A DNA stretch of 35,122 nt from Candidatus Gastranaerophilales bacterium (GTDB lineage: Bacteria > Cyanobacteriota > Vampirovibrionia > Gastranaerophilales > JANQFW01). Position 1 is the stretch's first letter. The number at the start of each line of letters is the position of its first letter. The notes below the pieces were generated by a model that was not told where the DNA came from, did no database searches, and saw nothing but the letters and a program-made list of their open reading frames with translations. Shown in pieces: positions 15,741 to 29,903 of the stretch. Made by a program: the position numbers and the translations under genes. Where the stretch lies: assembly GCA_028282645.1 (NCBI GenBank), contig JANQHM010000286.1, positions 1 to 35,122 of the forward strand. Direction: 5' to 3'.

Positions 15741-15968
15741 AATTTATCTCAAATTTTTTTTGACAACGAAAATACTTAATATAAGTAAATTTGAATAAAT
15801 TTGAAAAATTAAAAAGATTAACATACCTTAAATAATTCTTGTAATTTCTTAAATACAAAGGTAAAATATCTTAATGATATACAATATTTTTTTTTGATAT
15901 ATGATTTAGTTCGATAGTATTTACCTGTTTTATTTTCCTCTTCTTAAATTAAATAAAGGATTTTGTTA

Positions 15969-18900
15969 ATGACCGAATTAAATATTTTACATATTGCCGG
16001 ATTTTGCATCAAATCATTGGGTAGCTTAAATAATAATTTTTTAATAGAGTCATTTCTTAAAGATGTAAAGCAATGGTGCCTTAATAATAAGAAAAATATT
16101 AATCTGATTTGCATTACAGGCGATATTGTTTACTCCGGTCAAAAAGTGGAATTTGAGTTGGCGCTTAGCTTGATAAATCAATTATTAAAAATTTCCAATT
16201 GCAAACCGGAAAATTTATTTATAGTACCGGGAAATCACGATGTTGACAGAAGTAAAATTGATGCTTTTTCTATAGCGTTAAAAAAATATATAGTTGATGA
16301 AATAAAAAAAGATCCTGACTATTTTTCAACTCAAATTTTAAACAAATTGTCCGACTATCAGGTACTATTAGAAAAATTTGATAATTATCTTTATTTTATA
16401 AATCAGTTAAATAATCCTAAAATTTTCTGGAGTAATGATGAATCACCGTACTATTCCGTAAGAAAAGTTATTAATAATCTTCCCTTAAGAATAATAGGTC
16501 TTAACAGTGTTATAATGAGTGATAAAAATGATGAAGACGGAAATATTTTACTGGGTATTCAACAATTTACAGATTCTTTGGCGAAGAAAAATATAGACGA
16601 AAAAGTTATAGCACTAACTCATTATCCAATAGATACATTACCTGAATATGAGCGTAATTTTTTGCAAGCTCAAATGTCTAAAAATTCAGTAATATTACTT
16701 AATAGTGAAAACGAAAACTATAAAGACTCAAAAGTTCGTTATATAAATTGTTCTAATTGTATTAACTTTACAGCGGGAGCTTTAAATTCAGAATCTACAA
16801 AAAATAAATTTTATAATATTATTACTTTGAATGAAAATGGAGAACCTGTAAATACGGAGTTCAGGTGCTTTAATGAAGTATTTGGATGGGTAAAAGATAA
16901 AGAGTCTATAGAAATATTCAACGAGATAGCAGAATTAAGGAAAAATATTGGTTACACTCAGGCAACAGCAAGCATTCAATCTGATAATTGGAGTAACATT
17001 AAATTTGTTATACCCTATGAAATACCCAAAAATGAAATTTCACTGGACAGGAGGCCTCAGTTAGAGTTAATAAATAATCAATTAAAAGAAAATAACATCT
17101 TATGTTTACACGGTAAATGCGGTGTAGGTAAATCCAGATCCGCTATTGAATATGCATATAGCTATAAAGAACATTTTCCTGCCGGTGTATATTGGATTAA
17201 CGGCTCCGGAAATATGCTTGAAGAATTTTTTAAGCTTGCTTTTAGCTTAGGGCTTGTAGATTTTAACAGGGATTATAACTTTGAATATAAAATCAATTGT
17301 GTATTAAACGTATTTAAACACCTTGGAAATAATCCCAATTATTTATTAATTATTGATGATTTAACAGATTTTAATAAATTATATACTCAAATATGTTCAG
17401 GATATGTGACAACAGTTTTAAGTGCGCTGGAAGGAAGCATTTTAATAACCACAAATAATAAGTCTGATAACTGCTTAAAGGTTAATTTTTTAGAAATTAA
17501 TAAAATTTCAAGAGAAGAAAGCTTACAACTTTTATTAAAAGAATTTTCATTTAGCAAACAAGAATTTGAAGCTTCTTATGAGCTAACTGCAATGTTGGAA
17601 GATAATTTATTATTATTAAAAACAACGGGTGCCTATATTTTAAACTATTGCAATGAAAATAATGCATTAAATATATACTTTACAGAGTTTAAAAATAAAT
17701 TTTTTGCGGGTAGGCCCTCTATTGAAGCATTGTCTCCTCAGGAACTGTTAGAAGAAAAATTCAGGTTTATTTTTGACAAGGTTTGGAATTTATTTGATGA
17801 TGAATTTTCAAAAAATGCACTTAAATACCTGGCTGTTTCAAAACACTCTAAATGTGTTTCCATTAATAAAATTGGGATGGCTATAGGTATTGAATTTGAT
17901 AACTTTGATACCCTTTACCGAAAACTGGAAGATAAAGTTGAGGCATTTTATGGTCTTGGGCTAAGTGAAAAAATTTATGGCACTGAATTTAGACTTCATG
18001 GAGTATATCAGAAATTTATCTTAGAAAAGATAACTAATATTGATGAATTTAAGGAGTATGCAGCAATAAATTTTTATAAAAAACTTTCAGATATTGATTA
18101 CTTATCAAACGAAATATTAGATACAAATATAGAAAAAGTATTGGAGTATTTTGAAGATGCAATAAAAATATCTCCGGACAATTCCGAAATAAAATCGAAA
18201 CTTCAGAATTTATACTGGCTTATATCCAAAGAAGTTCTAAACATTAAAAAAATAAATTCAAAAAGTAAGACAGCTAAATTTAATCTGATTCAACTATTTA
18301 GAAATATTGCTTTTGAGTTTGGATATGAGCATATTGTGAATCAATCGGATAAACTCCTCTTAGCAAGCAATAACCTGTTTATTAAACAAACCAATAAGAT
18401 TAATTCATTTGATAAATCTTTTATAGCTACATTTTTAGGACATACAGCAGCTGTAACTTGTATAGAAATAACTAATGATAATAAATTTATTGTTACAGGC
18501 TCAAGAGACAAATTTATAAGAGTCTGGGATATTGAAACAGGCAAAGTTATATTTCTGTTAAAAGGTCATGATGATGATATTAATTGCTTAACTATAAGTG
18601 AAGATAATAATTATATTGTTTCCGGTGCGGATGATCATAAAGTAAAAGTATGGAACCTGCACTCCGGAAAACTGGTAAAATCTTTTGACGCTCACTCTGC
18701 AAGTATAACAAGTGTTGCTATAAGTCATGATAATGAACTTATTATATCAGGCAGTAAAGATTTTACTATAAAAGGCTGGAATGTTAATAAAAATAAAGAA
18801 GTCTTCAGCCTAGACCAAAATGATGAAATGATTTCTTCCGTATTTATTAATAGTGATTTTAATACTATTACTTCAGTTAGTACTGATAATGTATTAAAGC

Positions 18901-20225
18901 AATGGGATTTAGAAACCTGTAAACTTCTTAAAGAACAAAATATCTCAGATGACCCGAATATAACTTCATTAATTAGTAAGGACGGATTCTTTTACTTTTA
19001 TAGCAGTTTAGATAATAAAGCAAGACTTATCGATATTTTTACAAATAAAGAAGTCCAAAAATTTGATAATGAATATGATTTTATAAGTTCAACAGCTTTA
19101 AGCAAGGATAATAAATATTGTGCAACAGGCTCTGAAAACAAATTACTTAAAATATATTGCACACAAAGCGGAGAAACTTTAAATATACTTCAGGGGCATA
19201 ATAATTCCATAGAAAGTATTTGTTTTGATAATGAAAATAAATATGTTATAACAGGTTCTTCCGATAATACCGTAAAAATATGGGAGGTTCAAACGCTAAA
19301 TAAAGAGCAGGTTAAACCGATAAAGGGACATTCAAGCCTTGTTACCTGTGCAGTCTTCAGTACAGATAATAAATACATTGTCACGGGCTCGGATGATAGC
19401 ACTGCTATATTATGGGATGTTGAGTCAATCAAACCTATATATACCTTTGAAGGGCATGAAAAATCTGTTTATTGTTTAAATATAACAAGTAATAACTCTC
19501 AAGTCTTAACCGGATCTGATGATAATACAATAATATCTTGGTGTACAAAAACAGGTAAGAGCCTTAATGCATTTAAAGGCCACAATCAGTTAATAGAAGA
19601 TATTCAAATAAGTAAAGATAATAAATTTATTGTTTCAAGTTCACAAGATAAATCAGTTAAAATGTGGGATTTAGCATCCGGAAGCCTTATAAGGTCTTTT
19701 GAAAAGCATGATGATATTGTAAAAAGTGCAATAATCACAAATGATAATAAGTATATAATATCAGGGGCTTGGGATAGTAAAATTATTATTTGGAATACCG
19801 AAACCGGAAACGCTGAAGAAGTTCTGGAAGATCATACCGACTATATTACCAAAGTAATAATAAGTAATGACGGCAACTTTTTAGTTTCGTCTTCTTTAGA
19901 CGGTACCGTTAGAATATGGGATATTAATAAGGCATATTTGTATAAACTGCTTATTATAAAAGATGATCCGGTTTTTAGAATTTCTATAAGTAATGATAAT
20001 AGATATCTTATATTAGGCTCTTGGAATAATAGAATAAGAATATGGGATATCGAAAAAGGCAAACAGGTTGGTGAGTTTATAAGCTACTACCCTTGCCTAA
20101 CTTATAACTTTAGCAATAATGATAAGTCTGTACTTGCATTAAATGCTCCAGAGTTTTCAAACAGACCTAATTTATATAATTTAGAATTAGTAGGAATCGA
20201 CCAAATAAATACAGTATCTGTTTGA
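15969..20225 (+). CDS. STAND-type protein: calcineurin-like phosphoesterase-like N-terminus + NB-ARC-like NTPase + 14 WD40 blades
   Basis: CITGDIVYSG, IVPGNHDVDR (GNHD 16230-16241), LTHYP; Walker A GKCGVGKS (17112-17135), Walker B LLIIDD (17343-17360), sensor-like ILITTNN; 14 WD40 repeats from about 18427. ATG at 15969 preceded by AAAGGA; track ORF begins at a TTG at 15963. Confidence 0.93.
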   Translation: MTELNILHIAGFCIKSLGSLNNNFLIESFLKDVKQWCLNNKKNINLICITGDIVYSGQKVEFELALSLINQLLKISNCKPENLFIVPGNHDVDRSKIDAFSIALKKYIVDEIKKDPDYFSTQILNKLSDYQVLLEKFDNYLYFINQLNNPKIFWSNDESPYYSVRKVINNLPLRIIGLNSVIMSDKNDEDGNILLGIQQFTDSLAKKNIDEKVIALTHYPIDTLPEYERNFLQAQMSKNSVILLNSENENYKDSKVRYINCSNCINFTAGALNSESTKNKFYNIITLNENGEPVNTEFRCFNEVFGWVKDKESIEIFNEIAELRKNIGYTQATASIQSDNWSNIKFVIPYEIPKNEISLDRRPQLELINNQLKENNILCLHGKCGVGKSRSAIEYAYSYKEHFPAGVYWINGSGNMLEEFFKLAFSLGLVDFNRDYNFEYKINCVLNVFKHLGNNPNYLLIIDDLTDFNKLYTQICSGYVTTVLSALEGSILITTNNKSDNCLKVNFLEINKISREESLQLLLKEFSFSKQEFEASYELTAMLEDNLLLLKTTGAYILNYCNENNALNIYFTEFKNKFFAGRPSIEALSPQELLEEKFRFIFDKVWNLFDDEFSKNALKYLAVSKHSKCVSINKIGMAIGIEFDNFDTLYRKLEDKVEAFYGLGLSEKIYGTEFRLHGVYQKFILEKITNIDEFKEYAAINFYKKLSDIDYLSNEILDTNIEKVLEYFEDAIKISPDNSEIKSKLQNLYWLISKEVLNIKKINSKSKTAKFNLIQLFRNIAFEFGYEHIVNQSDKLLLASNNLFIKQTNKINSFDKSFIATFLGHTAAVTCIEITNDNKFIVTGSRDKFIRVWDIETGKVIFLLKGHDDDINCLTISEDNNYIVSGADDHKVKVWNLHSGKLVKSFDAHSASITSVAISHDNELIISGSKDFTIKGWNVNKNKEVFSLDQNDEMISSVFINSDFNTITSVSTDNVLKQWDLETCKLLKEQNISDDPNITSLISKDGFFYFYSSLDNKARLIDIFTNKEVQKFDNEYDFISSTALSKDNKYCATGSENKLLKIYCTQSGETLNILQGHNNSIESICFDNENKYVITGSSDNTVKIWEVQTLNKEQVKPIKGHSSLVTCAVFSTDNKYIVTGSDDSTAILWDVESIKPIYTFEGHEKSVYCLNITSNNSQVLTGSDDNTIISWCTKTGKSLNAFKGHNQLIEDIQISKDNKFIVSSSQDKSVKMWDLASGSLIRSFEKHDDIVKSAIITNDNKYIISGAWDSKIIIWNTETGNAEEVLEDHTDYITKVIISNDGNFLVSSSLDGTVRIWDINKAYLYKLLIIKDDPVFRISISNDNRYLILGSWNNRIRIWDIEKGKQVGEFISYYPCLTYNFSNNDKSVLALNAPEFSNRPNLYNLELVGIDQINTVSV
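18427..20200 (+). repeat. WD40 repeat array, about 14 blades (about 126 nt per unit), within the STAND gene
   Basis: Consensus GH-x-x-x-(I/V)-x-x-(aa)-x-(I)-(S)-x-D-N-K-(Y/F)-(I/L)-(V/I)-(T/S)-G-S-x-D-x-(T)-(V/I)-(K/R)-I-W-(D/N) counted by eye. Confidence 0.9.
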
Positions 20226-20270: not shown

Positions 20271-20630
20271 ATGCACACTATTTTAAAAATAATATTTATA
20301 TCTGTTATGCTTCTAAATACATTACCCTTGTTGGCAGATACTGTGGTAACAAAAGATGGAAAAGTATTAGAGGGCAAAATAATTCACTGTATAGGTAATC
20401 TTGTTAGCATAAAGACAAAAGACGGTATTATTCAACTGAATAGAGATTTGAATAAAGGGCAAGCAAGAGATGTTATAGAAATTGGCTATTTAAGATCCGT
20501 AAAAAAATTATCAGGAGAAGTAAAATATCTTGATCAAGTAGCTTTAGATCTTGATACATCAACAGGTGTAATAAAAATAAATCGAAGTAAAGTTAGAAGC
20601 ATCACGTTATCACATGAAAATAAATTATGA
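20271..20630 (+). CDS. Small secreted hypothetical protein with internal two-fold beta repeat
   Basis: Signal peptide MHTILKIIFISVMLLNTLPLLADT; two similar halves; ATG preceded by CTAGGAG. Confidence 0.75.
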   Translation: MHTILKIIFISVMLLNTLPLLADTVVTKDGKVLEGKIIHCIGNLVSIKTKDGIIQLNRDLNKGQARDVIEIGYLRSVKKLSGEVKYLDQVALDLDTSTGVIKINRSKVRSITLSHENKL

Positions 20631-20673
20631 CTTAATAGAATATAACTAATAAAATTGTACAAGGACGGTATTT

Positions 20674-21552
20674 ATGAAAAATATTATCATTTACAACGAA
20701 GCAGGGGATTCAAAGATAAAAGAAACTCTTGAACAAGTTGCTGAATATAACCTGGAAGTTAAAAAACCTGAATTTATCAAAGATATTCAAGCACCTAATG
20801 CTGATTTGGCCATTTTTGATCTCGACAAAGAAGGTACCAAAGATTTATTGGCGAGAAATAAAGTGCCGGTACCAACTTTAATAGTTTCTGACTGTATTAT
20901 CGAAAATTTACCGGTTAGAACAGAAGCTTTTGATTATATAATTACTCCAATTAAAGATGATGAGCTGTTGATTAGGGTGAGAAACCTTATTAAAATTAAA
21001 GAATTAAGAAATGAAATAAGAAGAGTTTCTACAACTGATTATTTAACCGGATTATATAACAGAACATATTTACATGAAAGGTTAGAAGCTGAATTATCTC
21101 GTTCAAAACGTTATAATGATTCATTATCATGTCTTTTACTGGATATTGATTTCTTTAAAGTTGTAAATGATATATATGGTTATGACTGGGGCGATGTGTT
21201 ATTAAAAGACATTACAGAAGTAATTAAGCGTCGTGCAAGAAAAGAAGATATTCTTACAAGATACGGTGATGAAGAATTCATAGTGCTTTTGCCAAATACC
21301 GATGAAGAAAGCGCATATCTTTTTGCAGATAGAATAAGAGTCGATATTGAGGAAATGGAATTTAAGCCTGACAATGAAGAAGAAAGACATCCGATTACAA
21401 TAAGCGGTGGTATAGCAAGTTATCCATTCCCTGCCGGCGAAGAAGAAACAGCACATACTATTATCAGATATGCGGAACATGCCCTATATACTGCAAAAAG
21501 TAGAGGTAAGAACAAGATAATCAAGTTTACCCAAATAAATTTAGAGGTGTAA
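20674..21552 (+). CDS. Response-regulator-like diguanylate cyclase (REC-like + GGDEF domain with GDEEF variant)
   Basis: DYLTGLYNRTYLHERL, CLLLDIDFFKVVNDIYGYDWGD, RKEDILTRYGDEEFIVLLPNT (RxxD I-site plus GDEEF at 21265-21279), C-terminal ALYTAKSRGKNKI. Confidence 0.9.
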   Translation: MKNIIIYNEAGDSKIKETLEQVAEYNLEVKKPEFIKDIQAPNADLAIFDLDKEGTKDLLARNKVPVPTLIVSDCIIENLPVRTEAFDYIITPIKDDELLIRVRNLIKIKELRNEIRRVSTTDYLTGLYNRTYLHERLEAELSRSKRYNDSLSCLLLDIDFFKVVNDIYGYDWGDVLLKDITEVIKRRARKEDILTRYGDEEFIVLLPNTDEESAYLFADRIRVDIEEMEFKPDNEEERHPITISGGIASYPFPAGEEETAHTIIRYAEHALYTAKSRGKNKIIKFTQINLEV

Positions 21553-28616: not shown

Positions 28617-29903
28617 TTAGGATTGAGCTTGGGCTTGTGCCTTAAATAGGCAACCTAAACCTAATAACATAATTAAACTATTCAATGGATTTTCTTTTTC
28701 AGAAACACTTGCACCTCCGTCACCACTGGCATCGCCGCCTGTTGGTTTTTTACCCTTGCTTGGACCAACTTCTTTAACAAGTTTTGAGTATTCCTTATGC
28801 ATATTATAGGTGTCCGTTTCATCGCTGGTTCCGAGTACAGAAAATTCTTGATCATGTCTGCATTCATGGACTATTACTTCTTTTAATTTTGCAGTGTTAC
28901 CTCTCAGTTTAGTAGAATAACAAGTTTTTCCATCAGAGCGACAAGTTCCGAGCACACCGCCACTAAAATTTTTCCACAGAGCTTTTGTTGCGTTGCCTCT
29001 TATATATTCAGCAATTTTTTTCCAGCTGTTCTTAACTCCGCTTTTTGTTGCACTCTTTATATCGTCACCTTTTTCTTGTGAAATTTTTTCACAGTCACAG
29101 GCCGCCTCTTCATGTGCAAATTGTAATTCCGTATCATTAGGCTCTTCTGATCCGTGGGTTGAGCCTCTTCCGTTGGCAGCTTCTTCATGGTTGCATACTT
29201 TCATTCCATCTTCGGAACCACCTTCATTGCAATTGCACTCTTGCTTTTCATCTTTGGAACCGTTTTCCTCACAATTACACTCTTCGTGCTGGACATCTTC
29301 TTTCATTTTATCCAGCAAGTTTTTTGCAAAACTTTTAACATTTCCGTCAAGGCTAGGCATAGTATTACTTAATTCTTTATAGTTTAAGTCAATTAATTTT
29401 TTCTTTTCATTTTCTTCATTTTCTTCTGTTTTTGCTTCAAACAAGTTTTCAAAGAAGTTTTTATTATCCCTGTCAACGGCATCTTTTTTGTCTTTCAATT
29501 GCTCACAGTCAAGACTAGACAAGTCTTCCTGTTCTTCCGCAACTTTTTGGTTAATCAGGGAACTAACTTTTTTCTTTAATTTAGGCATCGTATTATTCTG
29601 CAAAGTATTACACATTTCTTTTATTAGAGGGTGATCAATATTATTATAGCTTTTTAAAGCTTTGTCTATTTTTTTATTATCCTGCAATTCTCTTAAATGA
29701 CTTAAACTTGATCTTTCCATTTCTGGACCCAGGTTTTCATAACAGTTAATAATATCTGCACATATTTTTTTTATTTTATTATCACCAGACTCGTCTAGGC
29801 CGGAAAAGACATCTTTTTTAGAGTTTTTGTTTGTTGTTTGTCCGCTAGAATAAAGCTGACCAGATATTAAAGGAGATTTGCTGTTTGGTATAGGACCTGC
29901 CAT
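28617..29903 (-). CDS. Hypothetical protein with Cys/Glu-rich 14-aa tandem repeats, HECRH (HExxH) motif and C-terminal hydrophobic segment
   Basis: ATG with GGAGGA upstream; ECNCEENGSKDEKQ/ECNCNEGGSEDGMK/VCNHEEAANGRGST repeats; VIVHECRHDQEF at 28854-28868; C-terminal LNSLIMLLGLGCLFKA. Confidence 0.82.
   Translation of the reverse strand: MAGPIPNSKSPLISGQLYSSGQTTNKNSKKDVFSGLDESGDNKIKKICADIINCYENLGPEMERSSLSHLRELQDNKKIDKALKSYNNIDHPLIKEMCNTLQNNTMPKLKKKVSSLINQKVAEEQEDLSSLDCEQLKDKKDAVDRDNKNFFENLFEAKTEENEENEKKKLIDLNYKELSNTMPSLDGNVKSFAKNLLDKMKEDVQHEECNCEENGSKDEKQECNCNEGGSEDGMKVCNHEEAANGRGSTHGSEEPNDTELQFAHEEAACDCEKISQEKGDDIKSATKSGVKNSWKKIAEYIRGNATKALWKNFSGGVLGTCRSDGKTCYSTKLRGNTAKLKEVIVHECRHDQEFSVLGTSDETDTYNMHKEYSKLVKEVGPSKGKKPTGGDASGDGGASVSEKENPLNSLIMLLGLGCLFKAQAQAQS
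29157..29282 (-). repeat. Three 42-nt (14-aa) tandem repeats within the 28617-29903 gene
   Basis: GAGTGYAATTGY...GGTTCC(A/G)AAGATG units starting exactly 42 nt apart (29282, 29240), with a third more diverged unit. Confidence 0.8.

What the first reader, a model, noticed from the sequence alone, without database searches (positions are those of the whole stretch)
15969..20225. Large STAND sensor protein: phosphoesterase-like + NB-ARC-like NTPase + double WD40 propeller
The 1,418-aa product has a Walker A (GKCGVGKS), Walker B (LLIIDD), a winged-helix-like segment and 14 WD40 blades (two 7-blade propellers by count), with a calcineurin-like phosphoesterase-type N-terminus. STAND NTPases with an N-terminal effector and C-terminal repeat sensor are known signalling or anti-phage proteins (AP-ATPase/NACHT/Avs-type logic). 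This domain order sits alone among housekeeping genes and is the best candidate in the window for an uncharacterised defence or signalling system.
Basis: partly seen in the sequence, partly recalled or inferred. Interest (0 to 1): 0.75.

Follow-up and report, generated by a model that had tools for sequence, protein, structure and literature searches.

The report
Apaf-1-like sensor with dead enzyme domain
A bacterial gene encodes one large sensor protein built like the animal cell-death switch Apaf-1, but its front part is an enzyme fold, used elsewhere to fight phages, that has lost most of the residues it would need to act as an enzyme; this suggests the part is used as a docking or binding piece.

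Summary
Window 15969-20225 (+) is an intact 1,418-aa gene with a calcineurin-like phosphoesterase (MPE) fold, an NB-ARC STAND NTPase with intact Walker A and B, a helical linker, and 14 WD40 blades. Folds match phosphodiesterases, Apaf-1, CED-4, plant NLRs and Avs4.

The MPE domain belongs to the same effector family as the validated anti-phage protein DS-8 and the GTPase-associated (GASH) conflict systems. But in 82 of 88 relatives all eight metal/catalytic residues are kept, and no other relative misses more than one scorable residue. Here four are replaced (D11G, H13C, H247E, H249E). It is probably a pseudo-phosphoesterase.

The gene is not housekeeping. It is intact in no other of 382 sampled genomes of its order. 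The sister species keeps only a relic at the same site (4.08 kb deleted). That relic shares the D11G codon, so this loss is probably older than the split. The intact copy has no stop codon, so the open frame was probably kept by selection.

MPE-STAND fusions are common, but none of those sampled ends in WD40. Best reading: a ligand-sensing, ring-forming STAND switch with a non-catalytic N-terminal adaptor. Defence is plausible but untested.

The parts
15969..20225 (+). STAND protein, 1,418 aa: MPE fold - NB-ARC - helical linker - 14 WD40 blades
15969..16898 (+). Calcineurin-like phosphoesterase (MPE) domain, aa 1-310, of the DS-8 / PDC-S60 / GASH-effector family; probable pseudoenzyme
   Evidence: Pfam PF00149 E=4e-9; NF053861 E=4e-26 aa 44-309; PADLOC PDC-S60 E=2e-24 aa 4-314; fold matches Rv0805, GpdQ, Lmo2642
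15999..16007 (+). MPE motif I (D-x-H in relatives), here G11-F12-C13: lost
   Evidence: D 87/87, H 86/87 in relatives; sister relic reads G-F-Y
16122..16124 (+). MPE motif II bridging Asp D52: kept
16230..16241 (+). MPE motif III GNHD (88-91): kept
16620..16625 (+). MPE motif IV H218 kept; next His (87/88) is Y219
16704..16715 (+). MPE motif V (G-H-x-H in relatives), here S246-E-N-E249: lost
   Evidence: G 87/87, H 86/87, H 85/87 in relatives
17046..17765 (+). NB-ARC NTPase core, about aa 360-599
   Evidence: Pfam PF00931 E=2.5e-6; NF040586 E=4e-18 aa 359-557; fold matches Apaf-1, CED-4, NRC2
17112..17135 (+). Walker A GKCGVGKS (382-389), intact
17343..17360 (+). Walker B LLIIDD (459-464), intact
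17439..17456 (+). Sensor-1 strand ILITTN: usual Arg (26/35) is Asn496
17598..17615 (+). GLPL-equivalent: GLPL Pro (33/35) is Leu547
17997..17999 (+). MHD-like His677, kept
18432..20222 (+). 14 WD40 blades, starts at aa 822, 864, 906, 948, 990, 1032, 1074, 1118, 1160, 1202, 1244, 1286, 1329, 1370
   Evidence: Pfam WD40 E=8e-97; Foldseek 2ymu, Apaf-1
15839..15867 (+). Candidate promoter TTGTAA-17-TAAAAT; consensus hits are at chance level, but this stretch is strongly conserved upstream of the sister relic
16111..20186 (+). Segment (about 4.08 kb) missing from the sister species G001, whose relic keeps both ends

Best explanation
It is a single-gene STAND switch with Apaf-1 architecture. Inferred mechanism: in the resting state the two WD40 propellers hold the NB-ARC NTPase closed; a ligand (most plausibly a phage or other invader protein, possibly an internal danger signal) binds the propellers; ATP binding then drives ring assembly, which clusters the N-terminal MPE-fold domains. 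Because the MPE domain lacks most of its metal ligands, the clustered domains do not hydrolyse a phosphodiester themselves; they serve as a docking or ligand-binding platform, as the CARD does in Apaf-1 and as the MPE fold does in VPS29, for a partner not identified here. Shown: domain order, intact P-loop, loss of the metal site, family membership of the MPE domain, patchy retention with a relic in the sister species. Inferred: autoinhibition, oligomerisation, ligand, partner, defence role.
For: Domains and folds: Apaf-1 1e-8, CED-4 3e-7, Avs4 5e-7, Rv0805 1e-6; propellers align to Apaf-1 over about 600 columns. MPE family: DS-8, whose MPP and NACHT residues are both required for anti-phage activity (PMC13092281), PADLOC PDC-S60, and GASH/DO-GTPase effectors on plasmids, predicted as conflict-system effectors (PMC7159879). 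Loss of catalysis: 82 of 88 relatives keep all eight residues; no other relative misses more than one scorable residue; P0001 misses four. At least D11G predates the sister split: same GGA codon in the relic, H13 also absent there. Frame kept since: neighbours differ by 0.32-0.58 substitutions per 4-fold site, yet no stop in 1,418 codons; simulation expects about 12 stops at 0.05 and 22 at 0.10 substitutions per site. Distribution: no other intact copy in 383 order genomes; no other full-length match in the class sample. VPS29 shows an inactive MPE fold used as scaffold (PMC3101248).
Against: No partner, ligand or defence neighbour was identified; the downstream genes are shared with genomes lacking the gene. 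GLPL and sensor-1 residues of the NTPase have also drifted, so the switch itself may be weakened. Glu at both lost His positions could still bind a metal. There is only one intact copy to study, so selection on the protein could not be measured directly by dN/dS.
Confidence: 0.5

Rival explanations
1. Active DS-8-type effector with a remodelled site: D52, N89, H90 and H218, with Glu247/Glu249 as substitute ligands, hold one metal and still cleave a nucleotide or nucleic acid once the STAND ring assembles, causing growth arrest.
For: Motifs II, III and IV are intact; both His replacements at motif V are carboxylates; DS-8 needs its MPE activity; MPE fold predicted confidently.
Against: The whole D-x-H and G-H-x-H pair is gone, with H219Y and G246S too; no relative misses more than one scorable residue.
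Confidence: 0.17
2. A STAND signalling or transcription-related regulator (as MalT or AfsR are) with a cellular, not phage, ligand.
For: NB-ARC domain matches the FxSxx_TPR model, whose other matches also hit AfsR; gene stands alone among metabolic genes.
Against: No DNA-binding domain found; the MPE family is linked to conflict systems; patchy with loss in the sister.
Confidence: 0.17
3. A former immune gene under relaxed selection, on its way to the fate seen in the sister species; the degenerate MPE and GLPL motifs are early decay.
For: Relic with large deletion and frameshift in G001; drift at conserved sites in two domains; long branch in the MPE tree (1.88).
Against: No stop in 1,418 codons, Walker A/B and blades intact; a stop-free frame occurs in only 8.5% of neutral simulations at 0.01 and 1.5% at 0.02 substitutions per site, so only very recent relaxation fits.
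Confidence: 0.13

Closest known systems
DS-8 (NCBIfam NF053861; DefensePredictor, PMC13092281)
   Same: N-terminal MPE domain of the same family (E=4e-26) joined to a STAND-type NTPase in one protein
   Different: DS-8 has a NACHT domain and its model is 994 aa; its catalytic MPE residues are required. Here NB-ARC, 14 WD40 blades, and four of eight MPE residues lost; the model match covers only the MPE part and is far below the cut-off (91 vs 790 bits)
MPE-NB-ARC-TPR proteins (e.g. L058, L061, L063, L066)
   Same: MPE N-terminus followed by an NB-ARC-like NTPase with P-loop
   Different: TPR C-termini, intact MPE residues, about 20-25% identity
Apaf-1 (3sfz) and other AP-ATPases with WD40
   Same: N-terminal module, NB-ARC, helical linker, tandem WD40 propellers
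   Different: CARD instead of MPE fold; eukaryotic; no membership claimed beyond the NB-ARC/AP-ATPase class
GAP1/GASH/DO-GTPase conflict systems (PMC7159879; L052-L056)
   Same: Same MPE effector family
   Different: Multi-gene GTPase systems found here on plasmids; MPE is a separate gene with intact site
Nostocaceae two-gene pair MPE-SIR2 + nSTAND1-WD40 (L040/L070, L080)
   Same: MPE of this family next to a STAND protein with WD40 repeats
   Different: Two genes, a SIR2-like domain added, nSTAND1 instead of NB-ARC, active-site residues intact
VPS29 (PMC3101248)
   Same: MPE fold without phosphatase activity used as a scaffold
   Different: Eukaryotic retromer subunit, not a STAND protein; a precedent, not a relative tested here

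Membership tests
STAND NTPase, NB-ARC/AP-ATPase type | Recognisable NB-ARC domain with Walker A and Walker B | tested here: met
   PF00931 above cut-off; K388, D463
STAND NTPase, NB-ARC/AP-ATPase type | Sensor-1 Arg and GLPL motif (typical, not invariant) | tested here: not met
   R496N (R in 26/35), P547L (P in 33/35); these positions vary in relatives, so they weaken rather than exclude membership
STAND NTPase, NB-ARC/AP-ATPase type | Winged helix with conserved MHD-type His | tested here: inconclusive
   H677 aligned and kept, but the model around it is of low confidence
STAND NTPase, NB-ARC/AP-ATPase type | N-terminal module and C-terminal repeat sensor | tested here: met
DS-8 anti-phage protein | Full-length match above the curated cut-off | tested here: not met
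   91 vs 790 bits, MPE part only
DS-8 anti-phage protein | Catalytic metallophosphatase residues present | tested here: not met
   GCDNHHEE instead of DHDNHHHH
DS-8 anti-phage protein | Anti-phage activity | not testable with these tools
   needs expression and phage challenge
Calcineurin-like metallophosphoesterase (active enzyme) | Fold | tested here: met
   Pfam, Rv0805, GpdQ
Calcineurin-like metallophosphoesterase (active enzyme) | Two-metal site D-x-H, GD, GNH, H, GHxH | tested here: not met
   motifs I and V lost
Avs family | Recognition of phage portal or terminase by the C-terminal domain | not testable with these tools
   a fold match to Avs4 exists, but the C-terminus here is WD40 and no ligand was tested

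The most novel reading that the evidence does not exclude
A bacterial Apaf-1-like immune switch in which a former phosphodiesterase effector has become a pseudoenzyme, kept by selection as an adaptor that recruits a separate executioner, or as a decoy or binding site for the nucleotide or viral protein that its active relatives act on.
Probability: 0.33. Interest if true: 0.7.

Novelty: new variant of a known kind. Interest (0 to 1): 0.5.

Why it matters
An MPE-STAND protein has only recently been validated as an anti-phage system, and in DS-8 the phosphatase site is essential. A protein that keeps the fold and the P-loop but has lost the site offers a natural test of whether such proteins can signal without catalysis, as Apaf-1 does. 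It also adds an example of animal apoptosome-like domain order in bacteria, and the relic in the sister species shows that such a gene can be lost within a genus.

Tried and rejected
Housekeeping role: rejected, since the p119-GGDEF pair beside it persists without it elsewhere and no other intact copy is found in the order sample. Recent insertion into an empty site: rejected, because G001 has both ends of the gene, not an empty site. Phage origin: no match in phage records. Sequencing error as cause of the lost motifs: unlikely, as conserved residues in two separate motifs differ and the sister relic shares the D11 change. Loss of the MHD Asp as a sign of autoactivation: rejected, because relatives also lack that Asp. 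Recent amplification of near-identical WD40 blades, as in fungal NLRs: not seen, mean blade identity is 25%. Placement of the MPE domain on the tree: unresolved; it joins another long branch (L041), flagged as unreliable. An E. coli K-12 stretch was fetched only to test the tool. One first-pass motif listing used wrong offsets for Walker B and sensor 1, corrected.

Full report
What is there. The gene at 15969-20225 (+) is an intact 1,418-codon frame with an AAAGGA ribosome-binding site. Its residues 1-310 form a calcineurin-like phosphoesterase (MPE) domain, 360-599 an NB-ARC NTPase core, 600-815 a helical stretch, and 822-1418 fourteen WD40 blades. Foldseek matches the first 814 residues to Apaf-1, CED-4, plant NRC NLRs and Avs4, and to the phosphodiesterases Rv0805, GpdQ and Lmo2642. 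The WD40 half matches tandem propellers including those of Apaf-1, though its model is of modest confidence.

Where it is. The phylum sample includes Nostocaceae (a phylum relative, G591, is identical in the MPE domain to Desmonostoc muscorum), so the phylum is Cyanobacteriota; the small AT-rich genomes of the order suggest the non-photosynthetic Vampirovibrionia, which is inference. Upstream lie leuA, leuC, leuD and leuB on the other strand; downstream a 119-aa secreted-type protein and a GGDEF protein, then the pst-phoU genes (leu, pst and phoU names read from the translations). The p119-GGDEF pair occurs in two other families of the order without this gene and without leuA beside it.

History. 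In 40 relatives and 383 order genomes the only other traces of its MPE/NTPase part are a separate 435-aa MPE protein in G096 and a short match in G001, the only other genome of the genus in the sample. G001 has the same neighbours in the same order. Between them lie the same upstream region, a start codon, about 47 codons with a frameshift, and the last 12 codons and stop; about 4.08 kb between window 16111 and 20186 is missing. The gene was therefore most likely present in the common ancestor and was lost in G001 by internal deletion. Nothing with the same architecture was found in 386 phylum genomes or 382 class genomes.

The MPE family. The domain matches the anti-phage model DS8 (E=4e-26) and PADLOC PDC-S60 (E=2e-24). 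DS-8 is a validated single-protein MPE-NACHT system whose MPE and NTPase residues are needed for defence (PMC13092281). On plasmids the same family is the effector gene of GASH/DO-GTPase systems, as described in PMC7159879. A scan of 84,980 species genomes gave 79 loci (pattern-limited to the GNHD motif, best 80 kept). About 39 of the MPE-bearing ORFs also carry a P-loop; the C-termini inspected were mostly TPR-like, and L113 ends in a formylglycine-enzyme-like domain; no WD40 match was found in any MPE ORF of the set. In Nostocaceae an MPE-SIR2 gene sits beside an nSTAND1-WD40 gene.

The active site. In 88 relatives the eight metal/catalytic residues are nearly invariant: D11 87/87, H13 86/87, D52 87/87, N89, H90 and H218 88/88, H247 86/87, H249 85/87. 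82 keep all eight, and no relative misses more than one residue where the sequence can be scored; the window protein reads G, C, D, N, H, H, E, E. In Rv0805 numbering (general knowledge) the lost residues are the ligands of metal 1 apart from the bridging Asp, plus one ligand of metal 2. Other conserved positions such as PGNHD, G51, P220, D93 and G270 are kept, so the fold is maintained while the site is gone. The survey required motif III, so it cannot count relatives that lost that motif.

Timing. The relic in G001 reads LHITGFYIE where the window protein reads LHIAGFCIK; both have GGA for the lost Asp. A shared two-step codon change is best explained by loss before the split. Neighbouring genes differ at 26-41% of four-fold sites. 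If the gene had been unconstrained for even 0.05 substitutions per site, about 12 stop codons are expected; none is seen (substitution-only simulation with assumed kappa). So the frame was probably kept by selection after at least D11 was lost. Whether motif V was lost before or after the split is not known, because the relic does not cover it.

The NTPase. K388 and D463 are intact. The sensor-1 Arg is Asn and the GLPL Pro is Leu; the MHD-type His is kept. Nucleotide binding is likely; hydrolysis is uncertain.

Mechanism. By analogy with Apaf-1 (description in PMC13174449), propellers restrain the NTPase until a ligand binds, and ring assembly brings the N-termini together. With a dead MPE domain the output is most simply recruitment or ligand binding. 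VPS29 is a published case of an inactive MPE fold acting as scaffold (PMC3101248). No partner gene was found.

Verdict. Observation confirmed; interpretation partly supported; a new variant of the MPE-STAND kind, made interesting by the degenerate effector domain.

Noticed in passing
L007:486-3515 (G000 contig C44): Same genome carries a 1,009-aa WD40-Roc-COR (ROCO-type) protein, another eukaryote-like signalling architecture.
   Followed up: partly
L040/L070:6001-11069 and L080:6001-12128: Nostocaceae gene pair: MPE-SIR2 fusion followed by an nSTAND1-WD40 protein of 958 or 1,312 aa; looks like a two-gene conflict system using the same MPE family.
   Followed up: partly
L042:81-4841, L047:1128-4340: Cyanobacterial NACHT-HEAT proteins with the MPE domain at the C-terminus instead of the N-terminus.
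   Followed up: no
L045:3242-6187 (-): Weak bacterial Death-like domain, then MPE, then a receptor-type ligand-binding domain in one 981-aa protein.
   Followed up: no
L041:3019-5453 (G096, same order): A Fic/DOC protein gene directly before a 435-aa MPE protein of the same family with intact active site.
   Followed up: partly
window 20271-21552: 119-aa secreted-type protein plus GGDEF protein form a conserved pair in families f3 and f4; a close GGDEF orthologue is found in nearly all sampled genomes of the order.
   Followed up: yes
window 15820-15880: A roughly 60-nt stretch upstream of the gene is nearly identical to the sister species although the intergenic DNA just upstream of it is not; it contains TTGTAA-17-TAAAAT and may also hold a regulator site.
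   Followed up: no
window 28617-29903 (-): 428-aa Cys/Glu-rich protein with near-repeats (CNCEENGS/CNCNEGGS/CNHEEAAN), no Pfam family above cut-off.
   Followed up: no
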